The notes under the pieces were generated by a model that searched no databases, was not told the origin of the DNA, and was given only the letters and a program-made list of their open reading frames with translations. A stretch of DNA of 64,000 bases from an uncultured Arenicella sp. (GTDB taxonomy: Bacteria > Pseudomonadota > Gammaproteobacteria > Arenicellales > Arenicellaceae): contig CALINO010000001.1 in the NCBI GenBank assembly GCA_938045295.1, positions 1 through 64,000 of the forward strand, in the 5' to 3' direction. The position numbers were made by a program, and so were the translations under genes. Position 1 is the first letter of the stretch; the number at the start of each line of letters is the position of its first letter. This document shows positions 28,999 through 29,904 of the stretch, one piece after another.

Positions 28999-29100
28999 AC
29001 TTAATAATTCCAAGAACAGTTGCACACGCCGTGAGCATGAAACATGTCTATGAATGTGGTAGCAGGAGCAGGTCACGAGCCCGCTTTAAAGACGTTAGAG
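28999..29100 (+). repeat. Degenerate attC before the beta-lactamase gene
   Basis: ACTTAATAATTCC...GAGCCCGCTTTAAAGACGTTAGAG; R'' clear, R' degenerate. Confidence 0.5.
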
Positions 29101-29113
29101 GAGCATTAATAAA

Positions 29114-29872
29114 ATGAGAAGCACACCACTTTTATACATACTTGTACTCGCTTTTTCAAAAATCACTTTTGCCGAAGAGCTGTTACCAGACTTAAAAGTA
29201 GAAAAAATTGAAGACGGTGTTTATCTTCACACATCATTTGAAAAAGTTGAAGGGTGGGGGCTTGTCGCATCAAATGGGCTAGTAGTGCTTGATAATAAAG
29301 ATGCTTATATTATTGACACGCCAATGAGGGCTGAGGATACGGAAGCACTTGTACAATGGGTTCAAGATAATGGCTTTATTGCCAAGGCAAGCATTTCGAC
29401 ACACTTTCACGGTGATAGCGCTGCGGGTATCCCATACCTTAATTCTGTATCGATTCCTACGTATGCCTCAAAACTAACGAATGAGTTGATTCATAAAGAA
29501 GATCGGGAGCAGGCCAAATACTCTTTTGATAGTACTAGCTATTGGTTAGTTGAAGACAAAATTGAAGTGTTTTACCCCGGCGCAGGTCACACTAAAGACA
29601 ATGTGGTTGTCTGGATGCCTGATAAAAAAGTCCTGTTCGGCGGTTGTTTTGTAAAGCATAAGAGTCTTGGTTATTTAGGCGATTCTGTATTAGAAAGCTG
29701 GCCTGCATCCGCTGAAAAATTGCTATCCAAATATGCCTCTGTAAAACTTGTTGTTCCAGGTCATGGGGCGGTTGGCGACATATCATTATTGGAAGAGACA
29801 AAGAGGCTAGCCGTTGAAGGTGTCGTTTCTCGTAAATCACCCCAGCATGATCATAACGCATCTTCTGATTAA
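29114..29872 (+). CDS. Subclass B1 metallo-beta-lactamase, IMP/DIM/SIM-like
   Basis: Signal peptide; zinc ligands HFHGD, GHTKDN, GGCF, PGHG; long collinear blocks resembling IMP (GVYLHTSFEKVEGWG, SIPTYASKLTNEL, YWLVEDKIEVFYPGAGHTKDNVVVW, KVLFGGCFVK, KLVVPGHGAVGDISLL). Confidence 0.93.
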   Translation: MRSTPLLYILVLAFSKITFAEELLPDLKVEKIEDGVYLHTSFEKVEGWGLVASNGLVVLDNKDAYIIDTPMRAEDTEALVQWVQDNGFIAKASISTHFHGDSAAGIPYLNSVSIPTYASKLTNELIHKEDREQAKYSFDSTSYWLVEDKIEVFYPGAGHTKDNVVVWMPDKKVLFGGCFVKHKSLGYLGDSVLESWPASAEKLLSKYASVKLVVPGHGAVGDISLLEETKRLAVEGVVSRKSPQHDHNASSD

Positions 29873-29904
29873 AGCGTTGTGCATTAACAGAATAGAGACT
29901 CTGT

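What the first reader, a model, noticed from the sequence alone, without database searches (positions are those of the whole stretch)
29094..29881. IMP-like class B1 metallo-beta-lactamase carried as a cassette in a chromosomal integron
Seen directly: all B1 zinc ligands (HFHGD, GHTKDN, GGCF, PGHG) and extended blocks that, compared with my memory of IMP-1, align almost gap-free (GVYLHTSFEKVEGWG, SIPTYASKLTNEL, YWLVEDKIEVFYPGAGHTKDNVVVW, KVLFGGCFVK). Known: IMP/DIM/SIM-type carbapenemases circulate as cassettes in clinical mobile integrons and their source is unresolved. Inference: this is an environmental relative already in cassette form, in an array with its own intI, so a plausible reservoir or sister lineage.
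Basis: partly seen in the sequence, partly recalled or inferred. Interest (0 to 1): 0.92.

Follow-up and report, generated by a model that had tools for sequence, protein, structure and literature searches.

The report
Carbapenemase-like gene in marine chromosomal integron
A marine bacterium (genus Arenicella) carries, in its own chromosomal gene-capture system, an enzyme gene from an unnamed sister branch of the IMP and KHM carbapenemases; a close relative in Shewanella is a complete mobile gene cassette, but here the cassette's recombination site has decayed, so the gene looks locked in place.

Summary
ORF 29114-29872 (+) encodes a 252-aa subclass B1 metallo-beta-lactamase with all six zinc ligands. 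Its model matches IMP-1 (TM 0.95, 60% identity). It is not an IMP: 57-61% to IMPs and 59% to KHM-1, below every single-family cut-off. In a maximum-likelihood tree it belongs to an unnamed clade (support 100/98) of metagenomic, Shewanella, Cellvibrionales and Kangiellaceae sequences, outside IMP/SIM + KHM (96/86).

The integron is real. A full intI lies at 21394-22359 (-), with attC sites downstream; a genus mate holds an array of at least 34 near-identical attCs. The genus is probably Arenicella; no genus mate has this gene.

'Carried as a cassette' is only half right. The Shewanella relative (86% DNA identity over the body) is flanked by two canonical attC hairpins. In the window neither MBL junction folds as an attC, and the 3' site lacks R'' (AAC to CGT). 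A truncated second copy at 31564-31683 has decayed too. Best reading: a cassette by descent, now probably fixed; a sister lineage, not a demonstrated source of IMP. Activity is untested.

The parts
29114..29872 (+). B1 metallo-beta-lactamase, 252 aa; predicted secreted (signal peptide about 1-20). Zn ligands H97, H99, D101, H159, C178, H217 (= BBL His116, His118, Asp120, His196, Cys221, His263); W48 (loop L3), K181 (= Lys224)
   Evidence: ORF; NCBIfam; alignments; AlphaFold model, TMt 0.95 to IMP-1. The signal peptide was read by eye.
29094..29100 (+). Core-site-like GTTAGAG, just before the MBL leader: candidate cassette left edge (R')
   Evidence: Sequence. Same position as GTTATAA of the Shewanella cassette L012. 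The upstream candidate attC 29037-29100 scores 25.8 on a box profile, equal to the best of 30 shuffled 16-kb regions, but does not fold as an attC (z 0.02).
29826..29882 (+). Decayed attC overlapping the 3' end of the MBL: TTCTCGT where the Shewanella relative has TTCTAAC, then GATTAAAGC GTTGTGC in register with GATTGAAGC GTTAAGT
   Evidence: Junction comparison; no attC hairpin in the window (z -0.57) against z -3.52 for L012:8714-8769.
31564..31683 (+). Truncated second copy of the MBL 3' end (residues 209-248, one stop inside), 96% identical over 107 nt to 29747-29853; its site reads TTCTAGT...AAGCTTTATAC
   Evidence: the genome search, the repeat finder.
21394..22359 (-). intI, integron integrase, 321 aa, intact; tyrosine-recombinase R, H-x-x-R, H, Y motifs present
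   Evidence: TIGR02249, 414 bits; alignment to class 1 IntI1; 62-70% homologues in ten genus mates.
22663..22669 (+). GTTATGC, left end of the first cassette (junction with the presumed attI)
   Evidence: Sequence; exact complement of R'' GCATAAC at 23332. The extent of attI was not determined.
23332..23412 (+). attC 1, genus-typical (72-90% identical to many sites in genus mates)
23980..24057 (+). attC 2
24400..24604 (+). attC 3, interrupted by an insertion with a transposase OrfA-like remnant (MGQTKKRHYERYTLAFKLQAVKLANHPG)
   Evidence: Sequence; R'' ACTTAAC complements its own cassette start GTTAAGT. The remnant was identified by eye.
25113..25188 (+). attC 4 (GCATAAC..GTTAGCC); R'' complements its own cassette start GTTATGC at 24598
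   Evidence: Sequence; weak L stem under strict geometry.
27653..27759 (+). attC closing the LysR / azoreductase / SDR unit
   Evidence: Bottom strand folds as canonical hairpin, z -4.92.
28480..28585 (+). attC closing the DUF3291 cassette; R'' TGCTAAC complements its cassette start GTTAGCA at 27958. Last canonical attC, about 0.5 kb before the MBL unit
22666..25118 (+). Four cassette ORFs (22666-23328, 23429-23971, 24064-24405, 24624-25118 AAA_33 kinase-like)
25194..27614 (.). LysR regulator (-), FMN-dependent azoreductase-like (+), SDR oxidoreductase (+)
27762..28994 (+). Small ORF (66 aa), DUF3291 protein, DUF2164 protein
29905..32711 (+). 144-aa putative membrane ORF, esterase (PF00756), alpha/beta hydrolase; array status uncertain

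Best explanation
The gene encodes a secreted di-zinc subclass B1 metallo-beta-lactamase that most likely hydrolyses beta-lactams in the periplasm, as IMP and KHM enzymes do. It belongs to an unnamed lineage that is sister to IMP/SIM plus KHM. It came into the sedentary chromosomal integron of an Arenicella species as a gene cassette; the cassette's own attC overlapped the 3' end of the coding sequence. It was present in at least two copies. Both copies then lost the R'' box and the hairpin of that attC, and one was truncated, so the surviving gene is now probably fixed and cannot be excised precisely. Shown: sequence, fold, phylogenetic place, integron, flanking attC sites in the Shewanella relative, missing R'' here, truncated copy. 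Inferred: catalytic activity, arrival by IntI, loss (rather than original absence) of the attC, immobility.
For: Enzyme: NCBIfam DIM/SIM/IMP and B1 cut-offs passed; all zinc ligands plus W48 and K181; TM 0.95 to IMP-1. Lineage: 100/98 clade outside IMP/SIM+KHM at 96/86 (55); nine unnamed relatives tested miss the KHM, HMB, IMP and SIM cut-offs as the window does, while the KHM-1 control passes its own. Integron: intI; genus-wide homologues; shared attC family. Acquisition: absent from 18 genus mates at more than 50% identity and, at E<=1e-50, from all 109 other genomes of the order searched except two 44-45% homologues; array DNA 36-42% G+C against about 45-50% around it. Cassette ancestry: L012 has two canonical attC hairpins exactly flanking the gene, the two best attC-profile sites in its 16.8 kb; GTT in register at the 3' edge in window, L012 and L013. 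Decay: R'' AAC reads CGT here, AGT in the second copy, AAC in L012 and L013; hairpin absent.
Against: No biochemical data. The left-edge attC in the window is not demonstrable. The conserved 19 nt ahead of the start codon contain the ribosome-binding site, which KHM-1 and Cellvibrio homologues without attC also share, so that conservation is weak evidence for a cassette edge. Several clade members lack the coding sequence for R'', so the window gene may never have had it. My attC scans miss some true sites.
Confidence: 0.72

Rival explanations
1. One reading: a functional, excisable cassette in an active array; its attC sites are simply divergent and not recognised by my scans.
For: GTTAGAG and GTTGTGC cores at both ends; a profile score of 25.8 for 29037-29100; intI intact; genuine attCs can fail strict geometry.
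Against: The 3' site has no AAC R'' and no hairpin, and the left site has no attC fold, whereas neighbouring sites 23332, 27653 and 28480 and both L012 sites do.
Confidence: 0.13
2. Not a cassette at all: the gene entered a low-G+C, integron-adjacent island by homologous or illegitimate recombination, and the core-site-like edges are coincidence and ribosome-binding-site conservation.
For: No canonical attC at either edge; L013 and L014 carry the gene with no recognisable attC; a truncated second copy shows non-integron rearrangement.
Against: L012 is a clear cassette of the same gene; the unit lies 0.5 kb after a canonical attC, in array orientation; the GTT is in register at the 3' edge in three loci.
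Confidence: 0.14
3. A direct source or recent ancestor of the clinical IMP or SIM cassettes.
For: IMP cassettes start GTTAGAA and have R'' TTCTAAC followed by AAGTC, matching the L012 site TTCTAACAAGTC and the leader TTAGAAGG of L013/L014.
Against: Only 57-61% identity to IMP; outside IMP/SIM+KHM in the tree; Shewanella salipaludis L054 and a gammaproteobacterial MAG are closer to IMP. The shared GTTAGAA can follow from the ribosome-binding site AGAAGG lying at the cassette edge.
Confidence: 0.02
4. An MBL-fold enzyme that has lost or never had beta-lactamase activity.
For: No assay exists; no sigma-70 promoter match ahead of the gene (62).
Against: All ligands and neighbouring motifs intact; the nearest characterised relatives on two sides (IMP, KHM-1) are carbapenemases.
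Confidence: 0.06

Closest known systems
KHM-1 / HMB family (B1), pKHM-1 of Citrobacter freundii
   Same: Best NCBIfam score (380.6 bits); 59% identity; same ligands and same leader motif AGAAGGAA.
   Different: Cut-off 450 missed; separate clade (55); blaKHM-1 on pKHM-1 has no attC in the stretch scanned.
IMP family (IMP-1, IMP-14)
   Same: 57-61% identity; TM 0.95; Trp64 and Lys224 equivalents; cassette organisation in a relative (L012); Tyr instead of Asn at the 233 position, as in IMP-14 (63, 66).
   Different: IMP cut-off 460 missed (347.7); outside the IMP/SIM clade (55); attC decayed in the window.
SIM family (SIM-2)
   Same: 57% identity, same subgroup.
   Different: SIM cut-off 560 missed (323.1); SIM groups with IMP.
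Chromosomal B1 genes of Shewanella and other Proteobacteria, group B1-2 of Berglund et al. 2017 (PMC5637372)
   Same: Probably the same broad group (that group holds KHM, SIM, IMP); the paper already argued that most mobile B1 families come from chromosomal genes of Shewanella and other Proteobacteria.
   Different: Its KHM/SIM/IMP relative PST-1 had no detectable integron nearby; here the gene lies in a chromosomal integron.
Sedentary chromosomal integrons (PMC8618304)
   Same: Chromosomal intI, conserved attC family, cassettes mostly of unknown function.
   Different: The MBL's own edges are not of the genus-typical attC type.

Membership tests
Subclass B1 metallo-beta-lactamase | Zinc ligands His116-His118-Asp120, His196, Cys221, His263 | tested here: met
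   H97, H99, D101, H159, C178, H217
Subclass B1 metallo-beta-lactamase | NCBIfam B1 equivalog NF033088 cut-off 200 bits | tested here: met
   248.3 bits
Subclass B1 metallo-beta-lactamase | Beta-lactam hydrolysis | not testable with these tools
   No assay
DIM/SIM/IMP group (NF012145) | Score at least 288 bits | tested here: met
   343.6 bits; KHM-1 also passes (355.6), so the model is broad
IMP family | NF012147 cut-off 460 bits | tested here: not met
   347.7 bits
IMP family | Within the IMP clade | tested here: not met
   Outside IMP/SIM+KHM, 96/86
KHM/HMB family | NF012148 cut-off 450 bits; within the KHM clade | tested here: not met
   380.6 bits; separate clade. No named HMB sequence was in the tree
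Integron gene cassette (this gene in the window) | Bounded by attC sites with R''/R' boxes and foldable bottom strand | tested here: not met
   3' site lacks R'' and hairpin; left site has no attC fold
Integron gene cassette (Shewanella homologue L012) | Bounded by attC sites | tested here: met
   7920-7987 and 8714-8769 fold canonically and flank the gene
Sedentary chromosomal integron | intI with integron-specific model match, adjacent attC array, chromosomal location | tested here: met
   TIGR02249 414 bits; attCs; the gene at 18729-20387 and rimO on the two sides are conserved across the genus
Sedentary chromosomal integron | Integrase activity | not testable with these tools
   Catalytic residues present

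The most novel reading that the evidence does not exclude
Cassette formation is older than the split between this lineage and IMP: B1 carbapenemases of this group were already circulating as attC cassettes among marine chromosomal integrons (Arenicella, Shewanella, Cellvibrionales) before class 1 integrons captured IMP, and the shared GTTAGAA/TTCTAACAAGTC boxes are inherited rather than convergent.
Probability: 0.2. Interest if true: 0.78.

Novelty: new member of a known kind. Interest (0 to 1): 0.5.

Why it matters
The immediate sources of IMP-type carbapenemase cassettes are unknown. This gives an unnamed sister lineage in marine bacteria, one member of which (Shewanella L012) is a complete cassette, and one (this window) sits in the sedentary integron of another genus. 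It makes testable whether such enzymes were packaged as cassettes in marine chromosomal integrons before clinical integrons picked them up. It also gives resistance surveillance a defined clade that single-family profiles currently miss.

Tried and rejected
Plain GTTRRRY counts are no better than shuffles (157 against 146). A first R''/R' scan was swamped by chance pairs, and a minimum-energy filter missed most true sites. A strict-geometry scan misses most genus-mate sites at its high threshold, and a relaxed one finds 30 of 34 but with about 1.7 chance sites per 11.7 kb (70, 71), so absence of a hit is only moderate evidence. Phage or viral carriage: no related locus in viral contigs. The conserved leader as proof of the cassette edge: downgraded, since KHM-1 and Cellvibrio copies share the ribosome-binding motif without attC. 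An empty-site comparison in genus mates was not conclusive: left and right flanks fall on different contigs or are followed by other genes. Literature searches found no report of this lineage or of an Arenicella integron MBL in the library searched; most subscription papers are not in it.

Full report
What is there. Pfam gives Lactamase_B. NCBIfam gives KHM/HMB 380.6 bits (cut-off 450), KHM 373.4 (480), IMP 347.7 (460), DIM/SIM/IMP 343.6 (288, passed), SIM 323.1 (560), DIM 264.6 (560), GIM 253.6 (525) and the B1 equivalog 248.3 (200, passed). Against PDB sequences the best matches are IMP enzymes, E about 1e-92. In an alignment with IMP-1, IMP-14, KHM-1 and SIM-2 all six zinc ligands are present, and so are Trp of loop L3 and the lysine equivalent to Lys224; the residue at position 233 is Tyr, as in IMP-14, instead of Asn. 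An AlphaFold2 model from 32 sequences (mean pLDDT 85.7) superposes on IMP-1 with TM 0.95 normalised by the target, mostly 1.3-1.6 A, about 60% identity.

Which lineage. The nearest proteins in 5.8 billion are mostly unnamed metagenomic sequences at 73-78% identity; the nearest named are KHM-1, IMP-14 and others at 57-61%. In 72,556 plasmids nothing exceeds 61.3%. A careful maximum-likelihood tree of 64 proteins places the window in a clade of 12 (100/98) with P0002-P0008, P0011, P0012, the Shewanella locus L012 and the Cellvibrionales locus L013; this clade lies outside a group (96/86) that joins IMP/SIM with KHM. A quick tree of 95 rows gave the same main groups but left their order open. DIM, GIM, TMB, HMB and others were not in the trees. 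Nine unnamed relatives tested miss the KHM, HMB, IMP and SIM cut-offs; the KHM-1 control passes its own. Among 85,488 species genomes only three further loci reach 70% (L012, L013, L014), a lower limit because the scan is seeded by patterns.

Where it sits. The integrase at 21394-22359 (-) scores 414 bits against the integron-integrase model (cut-off 265) and aligns with IntI1 over its catalytic motifs. Ten genus mates hold a 62-70% homologue. Another genus mate (G008) holds at least 34 near-identical attC sites downstream of its intI, and attC 1 of the window is 72-90% identical to such sites in genus mates. The left flank (18729-21284) and the rimO-aceA right flank are conserved in the genus, so the location is chromosomal. 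G+C falls to 36-42% from 22 to 33 kb, against about 45-50% around it. None of 18 genus mates has the gene above 50%; two have 44-45% B1 genes elsewhere.

Is it a cassette? In the Shewanella locus L012, 86% identical in DNA over 624 nt, the gene lies between AACTAAC..GTTATAA (7920-7987) and TTCTAAC..GTTAAGT (8714-8769). Both bottom strands fold as canonical attC hairpins: five-base R stem, two unpaired bases on each side, then the L stem. They are the two best profile hits in 16.8 kb (30.2 and 26.8; shuffled 16-kb maxima average 21.4, largest 25.8). The second overlaps the last codons of the gene. In the window the same stretch reads TTCTCGT instead of TTCTAAC and the hairpin is gone, although GTT is retained in register (29876). 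In the truncated second copy (31564-31683) it reads TTCTAGT and the GTT is TTT. L014 also lacks AAC. L013 keeps TCCTAAC but does not fold. At the left edge the window has GTTAGAG at 29094, the position of GTTATAA in L012; the candidate attC 29037-29100 has a fair profile score (25.8) but no attC fold. Nearby attCs at 23332-23412, 27653-27759 and 28480-28585 do fold canonically. So cassette ancestry rests mainly on L012 and on position in the array, and present mobility is unlikely. Loss of R'' is the simplest reading, but original absence is not excluded, because several clade members lack the corresponding codons.

Relation to IMP. IMP cassettes begin GTTAGAA and carry R'' TTCTAAC followed by AAGTC or AAGGC; the first form has the same letters as the L012 site, and the start matches the leader of L013/L014. 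This could mean that cassette formation predates the split. The alternative is convergence: the ribosome-binding site AGAAGG lies at the cassette edge, KHM-1 and Cellvibrio copies without attC share AGAAGGAA, and R'' follows by complementarity. I give shared ancestry a probability of 0.2.

Known background. Berglund et al. 2017 (PMC5637372) placed IMP, SIM, KHM, GIM, DIM and TMB with chromosomal genes of Shewanella and other Proteobacteria and proposed such hosts as origin. PMC8618304 describes sedentary chromosomal integrons as the ancestral state and notes that class 1 cassettes come from diverse backgrounds. The present locus fits that picture and adds an unnamed lineage with integron association; it is not a new kind of system.

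Function and expression. Carbapenem or other beta-lactam hydrolysis is inferred from family and ligands only. No sigma-70-like promoter precedes the gene on its strand within 0.7 kb (a consensus scan only), so expression is open.

Noticed in passing
31564-31683: Truncated second copy of the MBL 3' end, 96% identical in DNA over 107 nt, with one stop; the copies are separated by a 144-aa ORF and an esterase gene.
   Followed up: partly
24400-24604: An attC split by an insertion carrying a transposase OrfA-like remnant.
   Followed up: no
25182-27759: A three-gene unit (LysR in reverse, azoreductase-like, SDR) lies between two attC sites: an unusually large 2.6-kb cassette, if it is one.
   Followed up: partly
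L107 (genus mate G008), 3600-19900: Sedentary integron with at least 34 near-identical attC sites; the contig ends soon after the stretch read.
   Followed up: partly
29114-29872 against L012:8001-8759: Body 87-97% identical in most 30-nt windows, but signal-peptide and C-terminal coding ends only about 53-63%; this suggests recombination or fast evolution of the ends.
   Followed up: partly
30590-30619: The esterase gene is preceded by GTTAGCTAGAAGGAAATTGA, resembling the MBL leader of L014 (TTAGAAGGAAATTTATAGA).
   Followed up: no
L003, L004 (genus mates G005, G006): Other B1-like MBL genes, 44-45% identical, at unrelated loci of the genus.
   Followed up: no
L054 (Shewanella salipaludis) and L023 (gammaproteobacterial MAG): Relatives closer to IMP than the window is; L023 has the IMP-type cassette start GTTAGAAAAGG and R'' TTCTAACAAG.
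   Followed up: partly
13770-13861 (-): SAH riboswitch (Rfam RF01057, 52.9 bits) ahead of the gene at 12322-13740, which looks like an adenosylhomocysteinase.
   Followed up: no
52000-57000: A second low-G+C stretch (35-42%) with strong GC skew; contents not examined.
   Followed up: no
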